From contig NZ_CVTD020000026.1 of the NCBI RefSeq assembly GCF_002904165.1, forward strand, positions 1 through 64,000: a DNA stretch of 64,000 bases. The letters are read 5' to 3'. A model generated the notes under the pieces. That model saw only the letters and a list, made by a program, of their open reading frames with translations, searched no databases and had not been told where the DNA came from. Source of the DNA: Herbinix hemicellulosilytica. GTDB taxonomy: Bacteria; Bacillota; Clostridia; Lachnospirales; Lachnospiraceae. The translations under genes and the position numbers were made by a program. Of this stretch, positions 4,595 through 64,000 are shown piece after piece (the first letter of the stretch is position 1; each line of letters starts with the position of its first letter).

Positions 4595-5392
4595 CTAATT
4601 GCTTGCCGATAAGGCATTTATATTATCAGCTGTTTGCTCATAAACCTGATTTGGTGTGTTTTCGGAGCTTTCCTGACTTTCCTTACTGTCAGGATTAACC
4701 TCAATAATCTCCTGAATCTTACCGTCAAGTATGTGAATAATTCTATCAGCATAATCAGCTAAACTCCTGTCATGGGTAACCATGACTATCGTCTGATTAT
4801 TCGCCTTTGCCATACTTTTTATGAGCTCCATAACCTCTCTGCTCGTTTTCGAATCCAGGTTACCGGTAGGTTCGTCAGCAAATACAATCTCCGGTTTACT
4901 GACAAAAGCTCTGGCAATTCCTACTCTTTGCTGTTGTCCTCCGCTCATTTCCGTAGGTTTATGTTTCAGGCGTGACCCTAAACCGACATTTATAAGCATC
5001 TGGCGGGCCAACTTCCGTCTAATCTTTGGCTTCATATGTTTAAAAACAAGAGGCAGTTCCACATTTTCCAGGGCTGTCATGGAATTAAGCAAATTATATG
5101 ACTGAAATACAAAGCCCAAAGTGTTTTGCCTGAACTTTGCCAATGCTTTTTCACTCATTTTATGTATATTATACCCTTTAATAATTATTTGGCCCCTCGA
5201 AAGCTTTTCTATGCCGGCCATCAGATTCAGCAAAGTCGATTTACCGGATCCCGATGCGCCGTACAAGCAGCAAAATTCTCCTCTTTTTATAGAAAAGCTT
5301 ACGTCATCTACGGCAACAATACGTTCCTTACCCATTCGGTAAATCTTTTTCGCATTTTTGACCTGTATAATAATATCCTGATCGTTTTTCAT
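4595..5392 (-). CDS. MacB/LolD-type ABC transporter ATP-binding protein
   Basis: The 265-residue nucleotide-binding subunit shows Walker A GASGSGKST, Q-loop FVFQSYNLL, signature MSGGQQQRVGIARAF, Walker B IVFADEPTGNLDS and the H-loop VTHD. This set and the NLDS after Walker B are typical of the MacB/LolD exporter class. It powers the permease at 210-1547. The start is placed at ATG (MKNDQDII), preceded by AGGATGG; the open frame extends nine codons upstream without a better RBS. The C-terminal 40 residues are a polar Ser/Glu/Asn-rich tail. It is the first gene of the operon, with a promoter at 5459-5487. Confidence 0.92.
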   Translation of the reverse strand: MKNDQDIIIQVKNAKKIYRMGKERIVAVDDVSFSIKRGEFCCLYGASGSGKSTLLNLMAGIEKLSRGQIIIKGYNIHKMSEKALAKFRQNTLGFVFQSYNLLNSMTALENVELPLVFKHMKPKIRRKLARQMLINVGLGSRLKHKPTEMSGGQQQRVGIARAFVSKPEIVFADEPTGNLDSKTSREVMELIKSMAKANNQTIVMVTHDRSLADYADRIIHILDGKIQEIIEVNPDSKESQESSENTPNQVYEQTADNINALSASN

Positions 5393-5458
5393 ATGGCACC
5401 ATCCTATACTTTTAGGCAAATTTTAGGCAAAGCCAGTATTATGTTTACAATATATTAC

Positions 5459-5487
5459 ATTATAATCCTTGTTAAAATTTTAATCAA
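5459..5487 (-). promoter_or_regulatory. Vegetative promoter of the ABC-exporter operon
   Basis: On the minus strand TTGATT (plus 5482-5487) and TATAAT (plus 5459-5464) are separated by 17 bp, some 65 bp before the ATPase start. This fits a sigma-A promoter. Confidence 0.6.
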
Positions 5488-5598
5488 TAAATAATTTCTT
5501 TTATTTTCCTGATGTACTATATATTAGACGATTGAAACAAAAAAATATATCCATTAAATTTATAAAATTTATAAATTTTTTTATTTCTGTAAATTTAT

Positions 5599-6816
5599 TC
5601 AAATTTTGTTCGGTTTAGCATCATTTGTCGTATCTGCAGGTTTTACAGTCTGACTTTTTTTAGCGGCTCTGTTTTCAACAAATCTTACAAATACCAGTTT
5701 CACATAAGCACCTACCGGCACCGCAAGAAGCATACCCAAAAAGCCGCCGACCGCACTGCCGAAGATTAGAGATATTATTATTATCAGAGGATGAATTTTA
5801 ATTGAACGGCTTAAAAGTTTCGGCCCGATATAATTTCCGTCAATAAACTGAATGACGGCAAGAATTATAATGGATATTACAAGTTTTTTTATTTCACCGT
5901 TTATGAGACAAACGAATGCCGTACTTACATAGGCAATAACCGGTCCGAAATACGGTATTAAATTGCCTATTCCGGCAAATATGCCTATAACCAGTGCAAA
6001 TCTGACACCGGTAAGAGACAAAGTTAGGCTTATTAGTACCATCATAACAAGAGCATCGGTCAATTGCCCTCTAAGATAACCGGAAAAGGCATAATCCAAA
6101 TCATTCAGTATAAGGGTAATTCTGTTGTTGGTGTTTTCGGAAAAGACTGCATAAAATGTTTTCTTTATAAAATCCTTAATTATTTTTCCGTCGATGATAA
6201 AATAAAATCCGATGATAAAGCTAAAAATAACCGTTGTAAGATATTTTGATATATTAGTAAGAGTATTGACTATGTTTTGTGCCAAATTCTTTAGTGCATC
6301 CAGTATTACAGTCACGGTCTCTTCCACATACTGCTCCAACTGGCTTGAACGAATATCTAGCTTCTCCATATTTTGCAAAATAGAATTATAAAAAGCTTCC
6401 AAACTCTTTTTATAACCTTCCGCCAGTCTTATAATATCATCAAAGTTAGCCAGTTTTAGCTGATCCGTCACGCTGTAAATCAGCAGTGATATTAAAGAAG
6501 CCACAACTATAAACAATAGTACAACAGACAAAACAGCCGCCCAGGTTCTTTGCCTTTTCATTTTTTTAAACAATTTAAACTTATGAAATTTTTCTTCAAA
6601 AAATCCTACAACCGGATCCATCAGATAAGCAAATACAAAACCTAATATTACCGGTTTTATCACCTTAAGCAGCCAATTTAACTTTTCAATCAGTACAGAC
6701 AAAATCTGCCATGCATTTTTCGCCAATAAAGAAAGTATATAAATAATAATAGCCGTGAAAATAACATACAGGGATATCTGCAAATACTTACGATTAAATC
6801 GGTCTTTAAGCTTCAT
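5599..6816 (-). CDS. AI-2E family transporter-like membrane protein
   Basis: The 405-residue integral membrane protein of the UPF0118/AI-2E (PerM/YtvI-like) family has about eight membrane segments. There is a long amphipathic region around residues 95-165 between the second and third blocks, and the typical C-terminal core with GIGNLIPYFGPVIAYV and IDGNYIGPKLLSRSIKIHPL. Members have been linked to autoinducer-2 release, Na+/H+ antiport or sporulation, so the substrate cannot be told from sequence. It is followed, 10 bp away on the same strand, by nothing else of its pathway: the cytidylate-kinase-like gene ends just upstream and may be cotranscribed. Confidence 0.85.
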   Translation of the reverse strand: MKLKDRFNRKYLQISLYVIFTAIIIYILSLLAKNAWQILSVLIEKLNWLLKVIKPVILGFVFAYLMDPVVGFFEEKFHKFKLFKKMKRQRTWAAVLSVVLLFIVVASLISLLIYSVTDQLKLANFDDIIRLAEGYKKSLEAFYNSILQNMEKLDIRSSQLEQYVEETVTVILDALKNLAQNIVNTLTNISKYLTTVIFSFIIGFYFIIDGKIIKDFIKKTFYAVFSENTNNRITLILNDLDYAFSGYLRGQLTDALVMMVLISLTLSLTGVRFALVIGIFAGIGNLIPYFGPVIAYVSTAFVCLINGEIKKLVISIIILAVIQFIDGNYIGPKLLSRSIKIHPLIIIISLIFGSAVGGFLGMLLAVPVGAYVKLVFVRFVENRAAKKSQTVKPADTTNDAKPNKI

Positions 6817-23580: not shown

Positions 23581-23631
23581 AACACACCGCTTTGATTTGA
23601 TAATTATATTATCAAATCAAAGCGGTGTGTT
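23581..23631. terminator. Bidirectional terminator between serS and the multicopper oxidase gene
   Basis: Perfect 24-bp arms (23581-23604 and 23608-23631) with a 3-nt loop, A-rich before and T-rich after, sit between two converging genes. It can terminate both. Confidence 0.9.
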
Positions 23632-28711: not shown

Positions 28712-28745
28712 AACGGCGCTGTGGAAATATTTCCACAGCGCCGTT
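28712..28745 (+). terminator. Perfect hairpin with U-tract at the very start of the asnA transcript
   Basis: AACGGCGCTGTGGAAA (28712-28727) is followed, after TA, by its exact reverse complement (28730-28745), then TTTTATTTTATT. It begins about 10 nt after the predicted transcription start and about 40 bp before asnA. It looks like a factor-independent terminator used as an attenuator. Confidence 0.75.
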
Positions 28746-53048: not shown

Positions 53049-54123
53049 TGTAGGTTTACAATACATGTGTTACAAAATTAAATAAATAAAAACGGAAATG
53101 CTCTCTTTTGTGTTATATTTAAGTTACCATACAAAAATACAAACAGAAAGGAGAAGCATTTCCGTATGGCTATTATAACACAGGATATGAGATTTAGACT
53201 AGCATTAATTAAGTATGCTGATAAATATGGTGTTTCAAAAGCTGCTGCTCGTTATAAAACCAATCGCCAGTATGTCTATCGCTGGAAACGCCGTTACGAT
53301 GGCTCTTGGGATTCTCTTAGAGATCGGTCCAGAAGGCCTCATCATCATCCTAATCAGCATACTGAAGAAGAAATCAAACTTATTAATAACATGCGCCGTC
53401 GTAATCCTCATGATGGTTTGGTTGTTTTTTGGGTAAAACTTAGGCAACGTGGCTATAAAAGATCCATCACCGGTCTATATCGTTTTCTTCGTAAGAAAAG
53501 CCTTATGCCTACTAAACCAAAAAAACCAAAGTACATTCCTAAGCCTTATGAGAAAATGTCATATCCTGGCCAGAGGTTCCAGATTGATGTCAAGGCCGTA
53601 CCTTCTTCATGCCTGGTTAATGAAGCCAAGGGGCAAAAGTTTTATCAGTATACTGCTATTGATGAATATTCCAGATGGCGTTATGTTGAAGCTTTTGAAG
53701 AGCGTAGTACATATTCATCTATGCAGTTTTTAGAGCACCTTGTAAAAGCATTTCCACTGCCCATAGAATGCATTCAAACAGATAATGGCATGGAATTCAC
53801 TAAACGCCTTTCATCAGGAAATAAAGCTAAAACACCGACAATTTTTGAAGTACGACTTAAGCAACTAGGTATTCGTCATAAACTCATACGGCCATTTACG
53901 CCCAGGCATAATGGTAAAGTAGAACGAAGTCATAGAAAGGATAATGAGCGATTCTATTCAACGCATACCTTCTATTCATTCGAGGATTTCAGTAAGCAGC
54001 TAACTATATATAACAAAAGAGAGTATAACCGTTTTCCAATTAGACCCCTGGGATGGAAATCGCCACAAGAAGTCTTAAATGATTTTATTAAGTATGGTGT
54101 AACATATGTTTGACAAACCTACA
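53049..54123 (+). mobile_element. IS481-type insertion sequence, 1075 bp
   Basis: The element has 25-bp imperfect terminal inverted repeats, 53049-53073 beginning TGTAGGTTTACAATACATG and 54099-54123 whose complement begins TGTAGGTTTGTCAAACAT. A single intact transposase gene fills it. Both ends abut a perfect 26-bp direct repeat. The ends and gene are undamaged, which suggests a recent insertion. Confidence 0.88.
53166..54113 (+). CDS. IS481-family transposase
   Basis: A 315-residue single-frame DDE transposase. A helix-turn-helix domain (SKAAARYKTNRQYVYRWKRR, about residues 24-43) binds the ends. A second HTH-like part follows to about residue 115. The catalytic acids are in RFQIDVKAV, QTDNGMEF and HNGKVERSHR, the D-D-E set of the retroviral-integrase fold (rve). 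RBS GGAGAAG upstream of the ATG. The stop lies within the right inverted repeat. Confidence 0.93.
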   Translation: MAIITQDMRFRLALIKYADKYGVSKAAARYKTNRQYVYRWKRRYDGSWDSLRDRSRRPHHHPNQHTEEEIKLINNMRRRNPHDGLVVFWVKLRQRGYKRSITGLYRFLRKKSLMPTKPKKPKYIPKPYEKMSYPGQRFQIDVKAVPSSCLVNEAKGQKFYQYTAIDEYSRWRYVEAFEERSTYSSMQFLEHLVKAFPLPIECIQTDNGMEFTKRLSSGNKAKTPTIFEVRLKQLGIRHKLIRPFTPRHNGKVERSHRKDNERFYSTHTFYSFEDFSKQLTIYNKREYNRFPIRPLGWKSPQEVLNDFIKYGVTYV

Positions 54124-54691: not shown

Positions 54692-56917
54692 ATGTCTGTT
54701 CTGGAGGATTTTAAGCAATCCCTTTTACCGGGAAATTATGCACTGACAAAATCAATGGAATTAACAAAATCTACGTACTGTGGTACTTTATGGTATACAA
54801 AAAAATTTTTAACTCTATATTATTATGTTTTCTTATCAAATGAAATCACTACTATATCCTATAAAGACAAAATTAGAACATCATTTGAATTATACGTTAA
54901 CAGTCTCGACGATTCTGTTAAAGATGAGGCCAACTCATTCTTTTTCCCTGATAATCCTACTATTAATGTAAAATCAGATCAATTTATTTTGTTTACCGAA
55001 TTTGCTGGATATACAAAATTTAATTCTAATGAGGAACGTGATGCATACATAAGGAATGCCAAAAAATTATACTTTGCCATTTTGATGGGAAGCGGAGGTC
55101 AAACTGGAGTAAAAAAGCTTTTAAAAGAATATATTCAACAGCCCGGTTTTGTATATTCAAAAGCAAATATTGAAAAATGTATTTTAGATGCTGCTATTAA
55201 AACTTGTGTTACTGAAATAAACAATAACAAAAAAATCAGTGATAATTCTGTTAAATACATAATTTCAGACCAGGCTGTCAAACATTTGATTGACATTGCA
55301 CAACACCAAAAGATTAGTGCTACAGACGTTCTTCAAGCAATTAATGACTTTCCACACAGTAATCCTAATTTCCGCATGATTGAAAGTGACCTGCCTGCAT
55401 TTATAAGAAATGAACGTCAATTGTTGTATTACTATGGATTTTTCCATTCAAAATCATCCGGTGCCAACGATTTTGAATTTAGCAGTTTAACACCGGTCGG
55501 GGAACTAGCCTTAATGGCAAATGCATCAGAATTCTTAGCCATTTGGGAACATCAGAAATTAAAAATGATTTCTCAACCGGCAACAGCCGAAATTAATAAT
55601 TTGTCAAATATAAAATGCAACCTTGATCAATTCGGAATAAGTTATTCACCATATACGGATATATTGGGATCACTCTTAAGAAGAGGCTCATTTTCTATTG
55701 ATGAATATAAATATATCATAGCAAGAAAGAAACATAGTATTCCGGAAGAAGACTGGATTAAAGAAGAAAATGCTATTTTTGATGACTTACAAAATATAAA
55801 GCAAATTGTTAACAATTACAAAAGAGCAATGGATATTAGAGACGAAGATGCCAGAAAAGAATTATTGAAGTATATTTTAGGCATCCGGTCCGACTTAAAA
55901 TTTGATAAATCAACCAATCCATTAAATATTGTGAAATTGGATAAAAAATCAATAACAGTTGTAAATAAGGATGCATTGGACCTTTTATATAAAGTTTATT
56001 CAAAATTAAATAACTACAAGATTCAAAAATATGAAAGTATTTTTATAGATTCCGAAAATGATTTAAAAAGCAGATACCGGGATGCCATAAACGGGATTAA
56101 TACTGCTGTTAATGAACGCGTAAAAATATACTGGGATTTGTATAACATACGTGTTGATAAATTTATTCTCGTCAGTATAATGGCAACTATTGCTGCAGTT
56201 ATGTCGGATATAAATGATATAGAAAACTTATCACAAAGTTCCATTGATAAAATATGCCAAAAAATCTTTAATACATTTAAAAAACTATTAAGATATATGG
56301 GCTTTCGCTCTTTAACGTCTATTAAGAAAGAAATATCGAATATAATATATTCGATTAAAAATGAAGATTATTCTGTTTACTTAGAAAAAGAAGCTGATTA
56401 TGATGAAGAGTCAGTTGCAAAATACAGGACCGAAAGTGCAAGCGACTTAAAATCACGTATTGAAGAAATATCCAAATTGGCTGTAGTATCTCCTATAAAA
56501 GAGATATCCAGAAATTCCAACCTTACTAATTTATTAAAATCTTATTATATGATTTGCTTTGCCGAAGACAATATGCTTAAATGCGAATGTTGCGGACAAG
56601 AAACATTTATTACACAAGCAGGTGAACCTTATGTGGAGTTTCATCATTTGATACCATTAAAAATAGCTTATGGCCCTGATCATTATCTCAATTTATTTGC
56701 TCTTTGCCCAAATTGTCACAGAAAATTTCATCACTTGCCAATCAAAGATAAGGAAGTAATTTATATTAATTTAAACGAGAACAATTATTTACACCTAAGC
56801 TTCATTGAACGTTTACGTATATTAAAAGAACAAAACTTATTAAAATCATATCACCTGGAATTTTTACTGGCTGATAAAGCAATAACACAAGCTGATTATG
56901 AAGATATTGCAGCATGA
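54692..56917 (+). CDS. Putative type II restriction endonuclease with C-terminal HNH domain
   Basis: The 741-residue protein has a long helical N-terminal part (residues 1 to about 620) that I do not recognise. It ends in a clear HNH nuclease domain: zinc-type CECCGQE at about 631, the catalytic EFHHLIPL at about 650 and CPNCHRKFHH at about 672. Two DNA methyltransferase genes follow within 8 bp and then overlap, so the natural reading is the cutting enzyme of a restriction-modification system, with the N-terminal part for target recognition. GGAGG precedes the ATG. Codon use and low GC suggest transfer. McrA-like modified-DNA cleavage is an alternative. Confidence 0.7.
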   Translation: MSVLEDFKQSLLPGNYALTKSMELTKSTYCGTLWYTKKFLTLYYYVFLSNEITTISYKDKIRTSFELYVNSLDDSVKDEANSFFFPDNPTINVKSDQFILFTEFAGYTKFNSNEERDAYIRNAKKLYFAILMGSGGQTGVKKLLKEYIQQPGFVYSKANIEKCILDAAIKTCVTEINNNKKISDNSVKYIISDQAVKHLIDIAQHQKISATDVLQAINDFPHSNPNFRMIESDLPAFIRNERQLLYYYGFFHSKSSGANDFEFSSLTPVGELALMANASEFLAIWEHQKLKMISQPATAEINNLSNIKCNLDQFGISYSPYTDILGSLLRRGSFSIDEYKYIIARKKHSIPEEDWIKEENAIFDDLQNIKQIVNNYKRAMDIRDEDARKELLKYILGIRSDLKFDKSTNPLNIVKLDKKSITVVNKDALDLLYKVYSKLNNYKIQKYESIFIDSENDLKSRYRDAINGINTAVNERVKIYWDLYNIRVDKFILVSIMATIAAVMSDINDIENLSQSSIDKICQKIFNTFKKLLRYMGFRSLTSIKKEISNIIYSIKNEDYSVYLEKEADYDEESVAKYRTESASDLKSRIEEISKLAVVSPIKEISRNSNLTNLLKSYYMICFAEDNMLKCECCGQETFITQAGEPYVEFHHLIPLKIAYGPDHYLNLFALCPNCHRKFHHLPIKDKEVIYINLNENNYLHLSFIERLRILKEQNLLKSYHLEFLLADKAITQADYEDIAA

Positions 56918-56925
56918 GGTGACAT

Positions 56926-57750
56926 ATGCTAAATATAAATGATATAAAAAACAAAATTTTTAACGCATATTCTAATGATTTGTTATGTGAATTTCCAAAT
57001 GATATAATAGATTTAGTAGTAACAAGTCCACCATATGATGACTTGAGAGACTACGAAGGTAAAATTGTATGGAACATGGATATATTTAAAAAAATAGCCA
57101 ATGAAATATACCGTATATTAAAACCTGGCGGAGTAGTAGTTTGGGTAATCGGCGACAGGACTTTAAATGGCAACAGATCGTTAACCAGTTTTAAACAGGC
57201 TCTTTATTTTCAGGAAATTGGCTTCAATATGTATGACATTATAATATATGAAAAAGCAGGCTCCGGGCCGCCTCACCCAAATAGATATTTTAATACATAT
57301 GAATTTATGTTTGTTCTAAGTAAAGGCAAGCCCAAAACAGTAAATCTCTTAAAAGACAAGCCCAATAAATGGGCAGGGGCAACAACATATGGCGAAGTTA
57401 CAAGAAGAGAAAAGGATGGTTCTCTTACAAATAAGGGCAAAAAAACCATTCAGGAGTTTGGAGTTAGAACTAACATATGGCGATATGCAAACGGAAACGG
57501 TTACTCTACAAAAGATAAGATAGCCTATTTACATCCGGCAATTTTTCCGGAAAAATTAGTTGAAGATCATATCTTATCATGGAGTAACCCGGGCGACTTA
57601 ATATTGGATCCATTCGGAGGAAGCGGAACAACAGCAAAAGTTGCCACAATTTTAAAAAGAGACTGGGTGTTAATAGAAGCCGTAAAAGAATACTGTGATA
57701 TTGCAGAAAAACGATTGGCGGGTATTACAGATGCAAACGATAATAATTAA
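56926..57750 (+). CDS. DNA methyltransferase (amino-methyltransferase, beta class)
   Basis: A 274-residue site-specific methyltransferase adding a methyl group to the amino group of adenine (N6) or cytosine (N4). The catalytic motif IV TSPPYDDL is at about residue 33 and the S-adenosylmethionine-binding motif I DPFGGSGTT at about 228, the IV-before-I order of the beta class. ATG follows GAGGTGA, 8 bp after the nuclease gene. It probably protects one strand or one part of an asymmetric site, the second methyltransferase the other. Confidence 0.88.
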   Translation: MLNINDIKNKIFNAYSNDLLCEFPNDIIDLVVTSPPYDDLRDYEGKIVWNMDIFKKIANEIYRILKPGGVVVWVIGDRTLNGNRSLTSFKQALYFQEIGFNMYDIIIYEKAGSGPPHPNRYFNTYEFMFVLSKGKPKTVNLLKDKPNKWAGATTYGEVTRREKDGSLTNKGKKTIQEFGVRTNIWRYANGNGYSTKDKIAYLHPAIFPEKLVEDHILSWSNPGDLILDPFGGSGTTAKVATILKRDWVLIEAVKEYCDIAEKRLAGITDANDNN

Positions 57751-59074
57751 TGCTTGTTATGAAAAAATCAAAAAAACGTTACATGATTCATATGATTTAC
57801 TTTCTGATGAAGGATGTTTATTTGCTATTGTCAGAACAGAATATGACAATAACTATAATGTTGTACATGACTTCTTTCAGGTAATTAATGAAGCCATTAA
57901 TATTGGCTATGATTATATTAATACTATTGTATATCCATCTTCATTTTATCAAAATACTTTTATAATTGATAACGTTAAATATATAGTATGGCTTGCGAAA
58001 AACCGCAAAAAAATGAAATTTAATAAAGATGCCATTAGAGAAAAACATATCTGGAAAGATATTGAATGGGGTAAAAGAGAAAAAAACTATAATCCCAAGG
58101 GAAAAGATCCGGGGAATGTTTGGATACCGACAGAAGATGATGGGCACGCAAATATAACTAATCATATTATTCTGGATGATGAAGGAGTTATAAAAAGGAT
58201 ACTTGATATGTCAGATTGCGGCTCTGATTTTATATTAATTAACGAGCCGACTGTGTATAATAATACACCTCCATCCCTTGACAATGCTCATCAAACCGAT
58301 ACAAACCTTACAATAAATGATTTATTTAGTCGAGTGTATTTTAAATCATCTGAAAACATGGATGATATAGAGGATGAAACCATCAAAGTGGTTGTTACCT
58401 CACCGCCTTATTGGAATCTTAAAAATTATTTTAAAGAAGGCCAAATAGGACAGGAAAGCTATGATTTGTATTTAGAACGAATAAAAAAAGTCTGGAGCCA
58501 ATGTTACAAAAAGTTGACCCCTGATGGCAGCTTATGGATAAACATAAATATCAGAATGCATAACAGTAAAGTTATACTTATACCATATGACATTATTAAA
58601 ATCTGCAAGGAAATCGGTTTTTATTATAAAGGGATATTGATTTGGCATAAGTCATCAGGGATTCCAACCAATGATAAAAATCTGGTTGACAGACACGAAT
58701 ACATATTAGCTTTCACCAAAAATTATGATGTAAATTTAAACTGCGATATAATGAGCTCTTTTTCAGACTATAAAAATGACATAATTAACGGAAAAGCTTT
58801 TTGGAATATTAACCGAAAAGCGGGCAGCATAGGTAAAAAATATATTCATCCGGCTATATACCCTAATGAACTTGTTACTCGCATAGTTAAAATGGCTTCA
58901 AATCCCGGTGACATAATACTTGATCCATTTCTGGGAAGCGGCACTTCATTAATTGCCTCTGTGCAGTTAGGCAGAAATTTTATAGGTTATGAGTATTATG
59001 AGGGTTTTCAGCCTTTGATGGAGTCACGATTTAAGGTTGAAATACCAAATACAAAAGTAGATTATATAATATGA
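57731..59074 (+). CDS. Second DNA methyltransferase with an extra N-terminal module
   Basis: The 447-residue protein has a beta-class methyltransferase in its C-terminal half: TSPPYWNLKNY at about 223 (this form is common in N4-cytosine enzymes) and DPFLGSGTS at about 398. The first 200 residues resemble a second methyltransferase scaffold (YLLS-like opening DSYDLLSDEGCLFAIVRTE, then VKYIVWLAKNR) but have neither a PPY nor a DPF motif. They may be a catalytically dead copy used for DNA recognition or dimer contact. The ATG overlaps the previous gene by 20 bp. Confidence 0.85.
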   Translation: MQTIIINACYEKIKKTLHDSYDLLSDEGCLFAIVRTEYDNNYNVVHDFFQVINEAINIGYDYINTIVYPSSFYQNTFIIDNVKYIVWLAKNRKKMKFNKDAIREKHIWKDIEWGKREKNYNPKGKDPGNVWIPTEDDGHANITNHIILDDEGVIKRILDMSDCGSDFILINEPTVYNNTPPSLDNAHQTDTNLTINDLFSRVYFKSSENMDDIEDETIKVVVTSPPYWNLKNYFKEGQIGQESYDLYLERIKKVWSQCYKKLTPDGSLWININIRMHNSKVILIPYDIIKICKEIGFYYKGILIWHKSSGIPTNDKNLVDRHEYILAFTKNYDVNLNCDIMSSFSDYKNDIINGKAFWNINRKAGSIGKKYIHPAIYPNELVTRIVKMASNPGDIILDPFLGSGTSLIASVQLGRNFIGYEYYEGFQPLMESRFKVEIPNTKVDYII

Positions 59075-59160
59075 CAGAAATCATTGGCTTTACCGACAGC
59101 TTAAGTTTACAATATACCATTAAAGTTTAATAAATGTCTTTAGATTAATAGGCATTGAAA

Positions 59161-59210
59161 AAACCTCCCGGTGGTTTATTTACATACTGACACCGGGAGG
59201 TATTCTTTTA
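59161..59210. terminator. Terminator between the restriction operon and the CRISPR array (left)
   Basis: ACCTCCCGGTG (59163-59173) pairs perfectly with CACCGGGAGGT (59191-59201). On the minus strand TTTTTT follows, so it best ends the leftward cas13a/array transcript. On the plus strand the tract is weaker (ATTCTTTTA). Confidence 0.85.
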
Positions 59211-59297
59211 TGGGCAAAATAGTAGGGTTGTAAATTATCCTATGCACATATCCTATAAATTTTAAAGAAACTATTTAAAAAGAGTTGTTTGACAACT

Positions 59298-59330
59298 GCA
59301 GGCCCGGTTCTTATCCGGACCTGCTTTTTC
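59298..59330 (+). terminator. Terminator between the restriction operon and the CRISPR array (right)
   Basis: GCAGGCCCGG and CCGGACCTGC pair with one mismatch and TTTTTCTTT follows on the plus strand. It would stop the restriction-modification transcript before the array. From here to 59495 the sequence is AT-rich with no further feature. Confidence 0.75.
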
Positions 59331-59495
59331 TTTAAGCGGAAAAATCTAACAAAAAAATAATCCTAATCTTTCTAAAATCACTTCAAATGTGAACTATTTA
59401 AAACAATTCGTAACACTTAAAAACATTTCTATAAGCTCAACCCCACAATTTTTAAGTTAATTACTTAAAACCGATTACAAGGACATTATCAAACA

Positions 59496-59859
59496 GTAAC
59501 AATCCCCGCCTGCGGGGATTGTTACGAACTCATTGATGAATTAAAGAGAAGATTGGAGGGGTTGCAGTTCCCCTGTATACGGGGATTGTTACTAATATTA
59601 ATACCGAAATAATCAGGCAGAAAGGTCGTTGCAGTTCCCCTGTCTACGGGGATTGTTACGTCCTTGTACTGGATCATTATTTTTAGGTTTCGGTGTTGCA
59701 GTTCCCCTGTCTACGGGGATTGTTACTAAATATCCTCAATATACTATCAACAAAAGAACAGTTGCAGTTCCCCTGTCTACGGGGATTGTTACAAGTTAGG
59801 TCAGGTCATCTTTGGATAACACATGAAGTTGCAGTTCCCCTGTCTACGGGGATTGTTAC
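59496..59859 (-). CRISPR. Type VI-A CRISPR array, six repeats and five spacers
   Basis: Five 32-bp repeats (59561-59592, 59628-59659, 59695-59726, 59761-59792, 59828-59859) are identical except for one base in the first. A sixth, degenerate repeat is at 59496-59525. Spacers are 34-35 bp. In crRNA sense (minus strand) the repeat reads GTAACAATCCCC, a 7-nt loop, GGGG, then AACTGCAAC: the short CCCC/GGGG stem with a 3' end next to the spacer is typical of Cas13a guides. The degenerate copy at the left marks the leader-distal end, so the leader is on the cas13a side. Repeat and stem match, from memory, those of HheCas13a. Confidence 0.97.
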
Positions 59860-59970
59860 TGCGGCATTTAAAAAGCCTTATTACAAGCGGGTTTGAGCAG
59901 GCAAAAGTGCGAAACCCCTGATTGGGATAAATTGTAAGCCCGCAAACCCGCATAAAATGGGATTCGAGTT
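59860..59970 (-). promoter_or_regulatory. Leader between cas13a and the CRISPR array
   Basis: These 111 bp join the end of cas13a to the first repeat. They contain the inverted repeat GCGGGTTTG (59887-59895) and CAAACCCGC (59943-59951). No convincing promoter is seen, so the array may be transcribed with cas13a or from a weak leader promoter. Confidence 0.5.
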
Positions 59971-62900
59971 TTATGTGTGCTTGGGATTCGCACTTGATTT
60001 GTTTTTGTCTTCATAATCAAATTTAAATAAATTACCTATACATTTTAAAATACTTTTATCATACACTTCCTCTTTAATACCATTACATATCCACTCTTTT
60101 TGCTTATCAAACATGTATGAATTTTTATAAATGTAGCAATCTTTTTTATGTAAATGCTTAAGGTGTATAATCGGTTCATTTTCTATGTCTTCTTTTTCTT
60201 TAATATTAAAATATATTTGACCTTCGTCTACTCTACCCTCCCACTTTATTCTAATATGATAATCATTTAAAAGCAAATCATTGATAGTTTTAGTAACGGC
60301 ATTCTGCCTTTTACGGTCATAAGCCAGTAAAATTCTTAAAGAGTTAATCAAACTTTCCAATGAACTTTTTGAATTTTGCTCTGTTTGGGTAAAATGATTC
60401 AAATGCGCAATAGGATTTCTTTTCCATATTATAGCGCCAAATTCATTTTTATTAAGTTTTTTATTCCAGCAAAGCATACTTACTAATTCTCTGTTTTTAT
60501 TGTTAAGATTATTCTGTATCTTTTTAACTATACGCCCATCATTATTATCATCATTATTATTAAATATAGCTTCAAATCTTCTCTCCTCCAATACGCCATT
60601 ATACACCAAAGCCTTAAACAAGAAATGCATATCCCGCTCCCAGTCTTGTGTATACCCTACCATACGGGCTGCTATATCAACATGAATCCTAAATATCCTA
60701 TAAAGAGATTCAAAATTTATTTTATGCTGTAAATGCTTGTAGCGGGCAACTTGTTCTAGGTTTTCTACATATTCTTTTACCTTGTAAAAATCCTTTTTAT
60801 CCAGGTATAAGGAATCTTTACCATTTTGCTTTTCAGATTTAAGTTTAATACGTTCAAGTTGTTCATGTAATTCATTTAAGCTGTTTTGATAATCTTTTAT
60901 TATATTGCTTAATTTAATATATTCCAGACATTCTTTTTTCGTAATAAGATAATAACCTTTAAAAATATCTTTATACAAATGCAAAGGAGCCGATCTCATC
61001 AGCAGTGCCATATATTTTCTTGTCACAGGTGTCTTACTATCAGAATGATAATATAAATTTGAAGTTTTCGGGTTTTTGAAAACTTTTTTTTCAATAAAAT
61101 CTTTGAAATATTTTTTTATCATTGTATCATATCCTGATTCTGCCTTAGCCGAAATTTCAGGGATTGACGGCATTGTAAACCTTACAAGCTCCATTAATTC
61201 TTCCAGTTCCGCAAGCAGTTCTGTTTCTTTTTCAAGCTTTGTACGGTTACCCGGAAATCTGCGTTCCTTCAGAGAACAACGGTATTTTATAAACTGGTGC
61301 TGCAATTTACATATCTCATTTTCATCCAGCAGGCGCAAAAACAAGTAGAAACATAAAAGATCCTTCCTTTTTATGTTCTTCTTATCTTTCTCATCTTCTT
61401 TGCCATCTGTTTTTACGGCTTCTGCGCTTGTATTATCTGTACTTTTACCCTTGTTGTCAATAAATGTACTTATGCTAAATCTGCATTTTATATTAAACGG
61501 GCTTTTTACTTTTTCTTCAGGAAACAGTTCTTTCAGAGTATCGTTTAAGCCAATGTTTTCTTTTGACAATGGGGGCTGTAATTCATTCTTATAATTTTTA
61601 AGTTTATTTTCCAAATATGCACCAAACGCCCATACAACAACATCCCGGATAAATTGTATGTAGTTATTGTTTCCCTCTTCTTTTTCATTTACTTCTTTTG
61701 CCCTGGCCATTTGCTTACGCTGAAGTACTTTTAAATAGTCGTCAAGTGATTCTCCCTGATAATCGGGGATGCTTTCATAGCGATATGTATTAACTGTAAT
61801 ATCATCATTTTCGTCAAAATTTTTATGTTTCTTATTATTTTTCGTATTTAATCTCTCTTCTGTTTCTTTGCGATTCCATTCTTTTGTCCGGTTTATAAAA
61901 TCGGTTATTAATGCTTCATTTTCCCTGACCTCAGGCAAAAATGCATGGTAATATATCAACTGCAGCAAATTCTTATATGCATTATAGCTCTGATCATTAT
62001 TTTTAACTTCAATATACCATGTTAACTCCCTGTATTCTTCCAGGGCTTTATATGAATTTTGTCCTTGATCCCCTGTTTCTTTGGGACCTTTATCCCTTAT
62101 ATATGCCTTATTAAGATTAGCACCTCTTTTATATACATTTTTAAACGCAGGCATTAAAGAGTTTTTCGGTGAGTAGAGGGCAAATTCCAGCCCGCATGTT
62201 TTGAAACAGTCGGATATCATATCAGCCTTATAATATTCCGCAATACCAAGGCTTCGAATCTGCTCACGAAATACATCGTATAAGTTTTCTATATCCCGCT
62301 TAATAAACTCTGCCGCTACAGAATAATCAATTTTGTTCTGACCGCTATTTTTATCATCTAATTCTTTAAGTAATTCCAGTAAAGAACTCTCCTTAAAATG
62401 GAATGTTCTATTACGCAGATAAGAAACACTTTCAATTGCATTTTTAACCAGTACAATTAAATTCTCTATATCATCATCCGGTCTATCTTTCTTGTCCTTA
62501 ACATATACCGGATAGAAAAAGGCCAGCTTCTCTTTAAAATGGTCCTGCATCCTGCTGCAAGTTCTAAGTTTATTAAAATAATTACTTTCTATTGCTTCCT
62601 TAGCTTTTTTCGTTGTAATATCATCAAATTTTACTGTGTTGCTATCATCAATGAAAAAGCTGGTAAGTCTGTTAATTCCCCAGGATAAGGAAGTCATTAC
62701 GGATTTTTTAAATGCTTCCTCCACCTGGATATACGACAGGCCATAGGAGTTAAGAAAATCCTCCTGCCAAGTATCATTGTAATAAAAGTAATACAGTAAT
62801 TTACCCTGCTGTATAAGTCCTGCAACAAGCTGATTTATTATTGAACGGTTAACTTCTTTTTTTACAACTTTATATGAGCAGTAATTTTTATATTTATCTA

Positions 62901-63828
62901 CCAGGCTCTTATCTTTGCTTTTGTTGGAATGCTTTGATTTGACAGGAAAATACTTCTTAAAATATTGCTCCACTTCTTTAAGAAAAAGTAAAAACTCCTC
63001 TTTATCCGGATTATATTTTGCACTGCCGCCATTATCAAGCCCGGCAGCCGGCCGGTCTCCGGAAACAAACCTATTATAATTAGTCCTTAAATTCTTGTGG
63101 TACTCTCTTAGCTCTTCGGAAACAGCCCTGGAAATTGACCGGGCTTTTTTATCTGTTTTGTCTAATCTATTAGTTATATTGGCTTTCAATTTATCGTAAT
63201 CATATATTTCCCAATACTTTTCAAGCATTTTTTCATTGAATGTTTTATTAGGCACATCAATCAGCTTAAACAACCATTTCATTTTTTTGGTCGAAGGAAC
63301 AAGTTTACTTCCTTCAAGAGAGAACGGAATACGGTTATTTTTTATCGACTTTAAAAGCTGCTCCTTTCTGTTTACAATATCTTTTTGTATCATTTCTTTT
63401 ATTTTCTTAAGTTCAGGAAGTACCTCTTCTTCCGGTATACCGGCTTGTATCTTACGTATCAAATTTTCCAGTGTATCATTAGAATCGGGCGCTTTTAGGT
63501 TTCTGCCAAACCCTGTCAGGTTTTTGTTTATTAATATATCTAAATTATCAGGATCGCTATCAACATCAATAGGCTCACATACTATTTTATCGTTACTGCC
63601 AACCAATCCTTTTACAAACATATAAAATGGGTTTTTATCGTCTTCTCCGTTTTTTAAAATGCGGCCACGCCAGGAACGTTCAAAGTCCATGCTCTCTATA
63701 ACTTTATCTGTGCAATCATTATCCTCCGAATCATAATAAAGCAAACCTTGGGACATATCCCTGTAAAACGCAGCAGTTATTTTTTGATCTACACTATTCC
63801 CACTAATTCTTCTGCGGGTTAGCTTCAT
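59971..63828 (-). CDS. cas13a: CRISPR-associated RNA-guided ribonuclease Cas13a (C2c2)
   Basis: A 1285-residue type VI-A effector. It processes its own crRNA, binds complementary RNA and then cuts RNA in cis and in trans through two HEPN domains. HEPN-1 has LRNRTFHF with R472, N473 and H477; HEPN-2 has [11 protein letters not shown] with R1137, N1138 and H1142, both R-N-x3-[11 protein letters not shown] before HEPN-2 and [16 protein letters not shown] and [11 protein letters not shown] after it are conserved in Cas13a. Cas13b, c and d have different layouts. ATG (MKLTRRR) after GGGGG is used; a frame extension of 27 codons lacks an RBS. Array lies downstream on the same strand; no cas1/cas2. 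Confidence 0.97.
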
Positions 63829-63880
63829 AATAATTACCCCCAAATTTATATGTAAATTTAACCCACTGTCTATTAATGTC

Positions 63881-63909
63881 AAAATATCATACAAATTTGT
63901 AAAAGTCAA
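63881..63909 (-). promoter_or_regulatory. Possible promoter of cas13a
   Basis: On the minus strand TTGACT (plus 63904-63909) and TATTTT (plus 63881-63886) have a 17-bp spacer. A second TTGACA at plus 63877-63882 has only a weak -10 (TAAATT). One of these probably drives cas13a. Confidence 0.35.
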
Positions 63910-63960
63910 TGTTTCAGCCAGATATTGGAGGTAATACTTAACTTATGCTTTCTTAGCAAA

Positions 63961-63986
63961 AAGGTAGCCGAAATTAATCAGCTACC
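63961..63986 (-). terminator. Terminator of the gene before cas13a (outside the window)
   Basis: AGGTAGC (63961-63967) pairs with GCTACCT (63980-63986) and TTTTT follows on the minus strand. It shows that cas13a begins its own transcription unit. Confidence 0.75.
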
Positions 63987-64000
63987 TCAATTATCTATCA

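What the first reader, a model, noticed from the sequence alone, without database searches (positions are those of the whole stretch)
59496..63909. Complete minimal type VI-A CRISPR-Cas13a system
One effector gene with both catalytic HEPN motifs intact (R472/H477, R1137/H1142) and a short array on the same strand form a self-contained RNA-targeting immune system. There is no adaptation module in the window, so spacers must be acquired in trans or the genes lie beyond the right edge. The repeat and length agree from memory with HheCas13a, a Cas13a of thermophilic origin, so the family is described; the locus is still the main system of this window.
Basis: partly seen in the sequence, partly recalled or inferred. 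Interest (0 to 1): 0.9.

Follow-up and report, generated by a model that had tools for sequence, protein, structure and literature searches.

The report
Known RNA-cutting CRISPR immune system
This is an intact, already described type of bacterial RNA-targeting CRISPR system (Cas13a) from a genome with no detectable spacer-capture genes; two of its five memory sequences match bacterial-virus genes, and its array begins and ends with sequence signals shared with relatives.

Summary
On the minus strand, 59971-63828 encodes a 1285-aa Cas13a (NCBIfam NF038188, 894 bits) with both HEPN motifs (RNRTFH 472-477, RNPIAH 1137-1142). Downstream on the same strand lie five full 32-nt repeats, five spacers and a sixth, altered repeat. 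It is most likely HheCas13a of Herbinix hemicellulosilytica, already in print; the name rests on recalled length and repeat. The assembly (3.04 Mb, rated 100% complete) has no Cas1 or Cas2 match, so adaptation genes do not lie beyond the right edge.

(2) CGCACTTTT starts exactly 52 nt before the first repeat in six of six loci of this Cas13a lineage (26-59% protein identity) and not before the arrays found at three of six other Cas13a loci. (3) The last repeat is a self-complementary, terminator-like fold-back, shared with one relative (48% identical Cas13a) but not two more distant ones. I met (2) and (3) in no paper, but searched narrowly. The system is ordinary; the array-edge signals are the new part.

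The parts
59971..63828 (-). cas13a, 1285 aa
   Evidence: NF038188 893.9 bits over 1-1192/1192 of the profile; PADLOC Cas13a; translation
62398..62415 (-). HEPN1 motif RNRTFH, residues 472-477
60403..60420 (-). HEPN2 motif RNPIAH, residues 1137-1142
63855..63882 (-). promoter-like TTGACA-16-TAAATT upstream of cas13a
   Evidence: consensus match only; 28 such sites found in 59000-64000 against 22.1 +/- 5.6 in shuffles
59860..59970 (-). leader between the cas13a stop and the first repeat
59903..59911 (-). leader motif CGCACTTTT, starting at -52 from the first repeat; only copy in the window
   Evidence: same offset in 6 of 6 lineage loci
59989..59993 (-). second leader element GTGCG (inverted CGCAC) at -134, inside the last codons of cas13a
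   Evidence: -134 in three loci, -123 in one, direct CGCAC at -131 in two
59828..59859 (-). repeat R5 (leader-proximal), crRNA sense GTAACAATCCCCGTAGACAGGGGAACTGCAAC
59793..59827 (-). spacer S5
   Evidence: no target found
59761..59792 (-). repeat R4
59727..59760 (-). spacer S4; 33/34 match to a 74-aa ORF of phage contig IMGVR_UViG_3300010273_000008
59695..59726 (-). repeat R3
59660..59694 (-). spacer S3
   Evidence: no target found
59628..59659 (-). repeat R2
59593..59627 (-). spacer S2; 35/35 match to a probable tail gene of phage contig IMGVR_UViG_3300010286_000068
59561..59592 (-). repeat R1, one substitution
59526..59560 (-). spacer S1 (leader-distal)
   Evidence: no target accepted
59496..59525 (-). 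terminal repeat R0: self-complementary fold-back (13 pairs, -20.9 kcal/mol against -9.2 for the normal repeat), terminator-like

Best explanation
An intact type VI-A CRISPR-Cas13a interference locus, most likely the described HheCas13a locus. cas13a and its array lie on one strand; the array is read from the cas13a side (from the cas13a promoter or from the leader) and the last repeat, turned into a near-perfect hairpin, ends the transcript. crRNAs guide Cas13a to phage mRNA; target binding activates the two-HEPN RNase, which cuts the target and bystander RNA. Shown here: gene, motifs, array, strand agreement, two phage matches antisense to predicted ORFs, no Cas1/Cas2 match in the assembly, conserved leader motif. 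Taken from PMC9282225 (passages): the HheCas13a enzyme is RNA-activated and thermostable and does not process pre-crRNA. Inferred: co-transcription, termination at R0, dormancy by collateral cleavage, spacers acquired by a Cas1-Cas2 no longer in the genome or acting in trans.
For: NF038188 at 894 bits against a cut-off of 150; both HEPN motifs, whose R and H residues are also in the Thermoclostridium protein and whose pattern is kept in the four relatives aligned; repeat found only at this locus; S2 35/35 and S4 33/34 in IMG/VR phage contigs, the first with tail genes, the second with an integrase, a PhoH-like protein and an RNA-polymerase-like protein; both ORFs lie on the strand to which the crRNA is antisense; no self-target beyond short weak matches; no Cas1 or Cas2; fold-back terminator-like last repeat.
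Against: No expression data. For three of five spacers no target was found. Both protospacers have G as the first base 3' on the mRNA; LshCas13a disfavours G there (recalled), so either this enzyme tolerates G or these two targets are poor. The name HheCas13a was not checked against a reference sequence. R0's tail is only moderately T-rich (TGTTTGATAA).
Confidence: 0.93

Rival explanations
1. A fading remnant: an old interference gene with a frozen array that can no longer take up spacers and may not be expressed. (This overlaps with the best explanation as far as the loss of adaptation goes.)
For: Only five spacers; no Cas1 or Cas2 match in the assembly; the last repeat is altered.
Against: Open reading frame of 1285 aa with both HEPN motifs; four of five full repeats identical; an exact phage match; leader motif kept at one fixed distance over 26-59% protein identity.
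Confidence: 0.15
2. The fold-back last repeat is an anti-repeat: its 3' arm pairs with the 5' half of the other repeats and lets a host RNase III mature the pre-crRNA, in place of the processing activity that this Cas13a lacks.
For: The arm GCGGGGATTGTTAC forms a 14-pair duplex with the repeat, -24.0 kcal/mol here and -21.0 in G777; the same 12-mer is kept in G777 although G777's repeats read TCTCC; HheCas13a is reported processing-defective (PMC9282225).
Against: The arm's own 5' half is next to it and folds at -20.9 to -22.1 kcal/mol; not present in Tcc, also reported processing-defective, nor in Megamonas; a terminator explains hairpin plus T-rich tail more simply; G777 keeps a G-U wobble instead of a compensating change.
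Confidence: 0.07
3. Adaptation is served in trans by the Cas1-Cas2 of a co-resident CRISPR system.
For: Three of six genomes of the lineage carry one Cas1, on another contig than cas13a.
Against: Those Cas1 proteins are type I-C, beside Csd1, with unrelated repeats and no CGCACTTTT in the stretches fetched; this genome and two others of the six have no Cas1 match (of those two MAGs one is 90% complete, and one is unrated).
Confidence: 0.2
4. The protein is another HEPN family, not Cas13a.
For: None found; Pfam has no match at E 0.001.
Against: NCBIfam and PADLOC Cas13a full-length matches and the array.
Confidence: 0.01

Closest known systems
HheCas13a (Herbinix hemicellulosilytica)
   Different: None known; no reference sequence was available, so identity is likely but not tested.
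TccCas13a (Thermoclostridium caenicola, L028; PDB 8ewg/8h4u, listed there as Cas9)
   Same: Same lineage; cas13a followed by a 32-nt-repeat array on the same strand; CGCACTTTT at -52.
   Different: 30% identical; 12 exact repeats plus one altered, last repeat altered in the same half but not folded back; its genome also has a type I-C Cas1 and a Cas6 match.
Cas13a of clostridial MAG AS08sgBPME_437 (L026)
   Same: 54% identical, nearest relative found; near-identical repeat; same leader motif and -134 element.
   Different: Contig ends after one repeat, so its array end cannot be seen; no Cas1 match in its genome.
   Same: Same effector family, over the NF038188 cut-off.
   Different: Separate side of the tree, 100/100; at the three loci where an array was found the repeats differ and no such leader motif precedes them; four of the six genomes have Cas1.

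Membership tests
Type VI-A CRISPR-Cas (Cas13a) | Cas13a effector by family profile | tested here: met
   NF038188 893.9 bits, cut-off 150, whole profile
Type VI-A CRISPR-Cas (Cas13a) | Two R-x4-H HEPN motifs | tested here: met
   RNRTFH 472-477, RNPIAH 1137-1142
Type VI-A CRISPR-Cas (Cas13a) | Adjacent repeat-spacer array on the effector strand | tested here: met
   the nearest relative has a near-identical repeat in the same orientation
Type VI-A CRISPR-Cas (Cas13a) | crRNA complementary to invader transcripts | tested here: met
   2 of 5 spacers matched, both antisense to predicted phage ORFs; transcription of those ORFs not tested; no target for 3 of 5
Type VI-A CRISPR-Cas (Cas13a) | RNA-activated RNase activity | not testable with these tools
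   reported for HheCas13a in PMC9282225 (passages)
HheCas13a itself | Sequence identity to the published protein | not tested
   I found no reference sequence in the collections; the repeat letters are in no held main text
Adaptive (spacer-acquiring) CRISPR system | cas1 and cas2 in the genome | tested here: not met
   0 matches for PF01867 and PF09827; the controls rang in 9 and 7 of 14 genomes
Cas6-processed array | Cas6 in the genome | tested here: inconclusive
   no PF10040 match in G000, but the control rang in only 2 of 14 genomes

The most novel reading that the evidence does not exclude
In this Cas13a lineage, in which no Cas1 was found beside cas13a, the array is bounded by two kept cis-signals: a leader with CGCACTTTT at exactly -52 and a second CGCAC element 71-82 nt further up in either orientation, read by an unidentified integrase or regulator; and, in the Hhe branch, a fold-back last repeat that ends the transcript and may also act as an anti-repeat for host-driven crRNA maturation, making up for the enzyme's lost processing. 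The locus would then be an adaptive system with a foreign spacer integrator and a tracr-like element inside its own last repeat.
Probability: 0.08. Interest if true: 0.8.

Novelty: already known. Interest (0 to 1): 0.45.

Why it matters
HheCas13a is used as a thermostable diagnostic enzyme (PMC9282225, PMC10949237, passages), yet I met no account of its natural context in the papers searched. Two matched phage sequences give natural targets to test, including whether it tolerates a 3' G. A leader motif at one fixed distance, in a lineage with no Cas1 beside cas13a, gives a concrete handle on how type VI-A arrays take up spacers, which PMC6753606 of 2019 (start of abstract as listed) calls unknown. 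The fold-back last repeat gives a testable element for array termination or maturation in a Cas13a reported not to process its own crRNA.

Tried and rejected
Non-Cas13 HEPN family: rejected. Adaptation genes right of the window: rejected (whole assembly). S1 match to a Paenibacillus plasmid VirD4 gene: rejected, 13 of 34 matched letters are repeat, E 0.1. Megamonas spacer against a C. difficile phage gene: rejected, 28/34 and AT-rich. Tcc array against INPHARED: no match at E 1. INPHARED matches of the window array: E 6, rejected. A hairpin between the leader motif and the first repeat: 71% of 42 cells paired, covariation score reached by 8 of 500 shuffles, but sliding by +3 gives the same score; left as suggestive only. 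Rfam: nothing at E 1 in 58900-64000. Relatives in plasmids, in viral contigs and in a first scan of genome contigs with one sequence: none; the second scan with a two-row alignment gave four. G777 motif hit on C85 carries the same leader as C46 and is taken as one array split over two contigs. L030 has the contig length, ORF coordinates and downstream letters of L029 and was dropped from counts. L002, L012 and L013 are short weak matches, not used. Papers searched; seen as passages only: PMC9282225, PMC10949237, PMC6753606, PMC8776769; the rest as listings.
Full report
What is there. The window is G000:C26:1-64000 of a 3,036,611-base, 35-contig assembly rated 100% complete. On the minus strand, 63828-59971 encodes 1285 aa with RNRTFH at 472-477 and RNPIAH at 1137-1142. 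NCBIfam NF038188 (Cas13a) matches over its full length at 893.9 bits, cut-off 150; PADLOC agrees; Pfam has no match at E 0.001. Among solved structures the best sequence match is 8ewg/8h4u, E 1.5e-88, whose chain is named Cas9 in that listing but whose letters, in the stretches shown, agree with the Thermoclostridium caenicola Cas13a of L010/L028. Downstream on the same strand, after 111 nt, come five full 32-nt repeats with spacers of 34-35 nt and a sixth, altered repeat. The repeat occurs nowhere else in the assembly within 3 mismatches.

Adaptation. No Cas1 (PF01867) and no Cas2 (PF09827) match in the whole assembly; the controls rang in 9 and 7 of 14 reference genomes. The genes are therefore not beyond the right edge. 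Cas6 (PF10040) also gave no match, but that control rang in only 2 of 14, so this test is weak. Of 13 genomes tested for Cas1, 7 had one. Of the six genomes of this Cas13a lineage three had one each (G440, G777, G1175), on another contig than cas13a; all three are type I-C Cas1 beside Csd1, with unrelated repeats and no leader motif in the stretches fetched. The other three (G000, G789, G1174) had none; G789 is 90% complete and G1174 is unrated. Cas2 was tested in G000 only. [quoted passage not shown]

Natural targets. Because Cas13 acts on RNA, I took for each spacer an open frame on the strand opposite to the crRNA (S3 and S4 have a second open frame there, not tried) and searched IMG/VR with codon-degenerate patterns: S1, S3 and S5 gave 0, S2 gave 1, S4 gave 1 (frames). 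Read back at the DNA level, S2 is 35/35 identical to L016 and S4 is 33/34 identical to L017; the best ungapped matches of the reversed spacers to the same contigs were 19 and 23. L016 carries a major tail protein, a tape measure protein and, at the match, a 477-aa incomplete ORF in a PHROG of unknown function, 36% identical to a putative tail spike protein of Roseburia phage Jekyll, so probably a tail gene. L017 carries an integrase, a PhoH-like protein and a large protein related to SPbeta-type phage proteins, annotated in some records as RNA-dependent RNA polymerase; the match lies in a 74-aa ORF with no PHROG match. In both cases the crRNA is antisense to the ORF. On the mRNA both protospacers are followed by GAAT; the flank agrees with the anti-tag at position 1 only (S2) or at positions 1 and 9-11 (S4), so there is no extended self-like anti-tag. 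Exact 20- and 22-mers of S5 and S3 gave 0. INPHARED and PLSDB gave nothing convincing for any of the five spacers. No self-target beyond short weak matches in the host assembly. The two contigs come from metagenomes with close numbers; their habitat is not told by the tools and no held paper text names them.

Lineage. Of 397 genomes of the same family searched with the protein, 2 matched: the window's own and G390, weakly (17 bits, E 6.9e-4). With the NF038188 profile, counts over its cut-off were 7 of 397 (family), 2 of 391 (class) and 1 of 398 (phylum), each with the window's own genome included, and 3 of 33 (order of G440). A second genome-contig scan gave L026-L029. Pairwise, the window protein is 54% identical to L026, 48% to L031, 34% to L027 (Megamonas), 30% to L028 (T. 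caenicola) and 30% to L029. In a 12-row tree these six are one side of a branch (100/100), apart from the six other Cas13a of the window's own family; the root is a midpoint, two rows of the other group (L042, L043) are long, and the make-up of L042, L043 and the window protein departs from the alignment's.

Leader. In all six lineage loci CGCACTTTT begins exactly 52 nt before the first repeat and is its only copy in the sequence examined (1 copy in the 64-kb window). A second element lies further up: GTGCG at -134 (Hhe, L026, L031) or -123 (L027), or direct CGCAC at -131 (L028, L029). Outside the 13-column block that holds the motif, pairwise leader identity is 27-61%, and 7 of 127 columns are invariant; the 61% pair is the window and L026. 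Of six other-clade loci, an array was detected at three (L039-L041) and the motif precedes none of these; L040 has a lone copy about 0.5 kb from its array, and L038, where no array was detected, has one inside cas13a; L042 and L043 have neither array nor motif. With the 14-letter form RGNTYCGCACTTTT, the window genome has one copy, at the leader; 6 of 11 genomes have at least one, and those of the two genomes outside the lineage (G277, G004) lie in stretches without repeats. Fixed spacing with either orientation of the far element suggests a protein-binding DNA site; whether for spacer integration or transcription I cannot tell. A small hairpin between motif and repeat is only suggestive.

Last repeat. 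R0 is self-complementary: 13 pairs, -20.9 kcal/mol, against -9.2 for the normal repeat. No palindrome with 14-bp arms and a loop of at most 2 arose in 20 single-base shuffles of the window, although the real window holds two longer ones elsewhere. The terminator scan lists R0 with 13 pairs and tail TGTTTGATAA. In G777 the last repeat is also folded back (15 pairs) and followed by TTTTCC. Its 3' arm keeps GGGGATTGTTAC, which matches the window's repeat rather than G777's own present repeat (TCTCC), so the arm looks inherited rather than newly copied (inference). T. caenicola and Megamonas have altered last repeats without fold-back and no terminator-like site in the stretch scanned: 2 of 4 arrays with a visible end have it; L026 and L029 run into contig ends. 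Most likely this is an intrinsic terminator formed from the last repeat. The anti-repeat reading is possible because the arm can form a 14-pair duplex with the repeat (-24.0 kcal/mol), but the adjacent half competes.

How it works. See Best explanation for what is shown, taken from print, and inferred. PMC9282225 (passages only) reports HheCas13a activity at 37-60 C, a need for spacers of 24 nt or longer, and that HheCas13a and TccCas13a do not process pre-crRNA.

Known or new. The system and, very likely, this very protein are known. Identity to HheCas13a rests on recalled length and repeat; the repeat letters are in no held main text and the primary paper is not held under the DOI I recalled. 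For the leader motif one search for papers holding five terms found none, and one search on array ends listed 15 of 144 papers, seen as listings only; that is a thin basis for saying they are not in print.

Noticed in passing
54692-59074 (+): Beside the Cas13a locus: a 741-aa protein with an HNH domain (weak type IV restriction match over that domain) and two overlapping N6/N4 DNA methylase genes, probably a restriction-modification cluster.
   Followed up: partly
53166-54113 (+): IS481-like transposase, 220.5 bits, just under the family cut-off of 224, left of the methylase cluster.
   Followed up: no
L017:6931-9249 (+): Phage protein with a DFDGD motif, related to SPbeta-type phage proteins annotated in some records as RNA-dependent RNA polymerase; perhaps a YonO-like RNA polymerase (recalled), on a phage contig matched by spacer S4.
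   Followed up: partly
L016:6383-6417 (+) and L017:203-236 (-): Both protospacers of this array are followed on the mRNA by GAAT; two cases only, possibly an acquisition motif.
   Followed up: partly
59860-59970 (-): The 111-nt leader folds at -33 kcal/mol, z -3.0 against shuffles; no Rfam match.
   Followed up: no
23581-23631 and 28712-28745: Two long palindromes with 24- and 17-bp arms elsewhere in the window, perhaps terminators or binding sites.
   Followed up: no
PDB 8ewg, 8h4u: The molecule is named Cas9 in the listing although its sequence is a Cas13a.
   Followed up: no
L040, about 4698-5680: Array of another Cas13a locus with uneven unit spacing, 69-89 nt.
   Followed up: no
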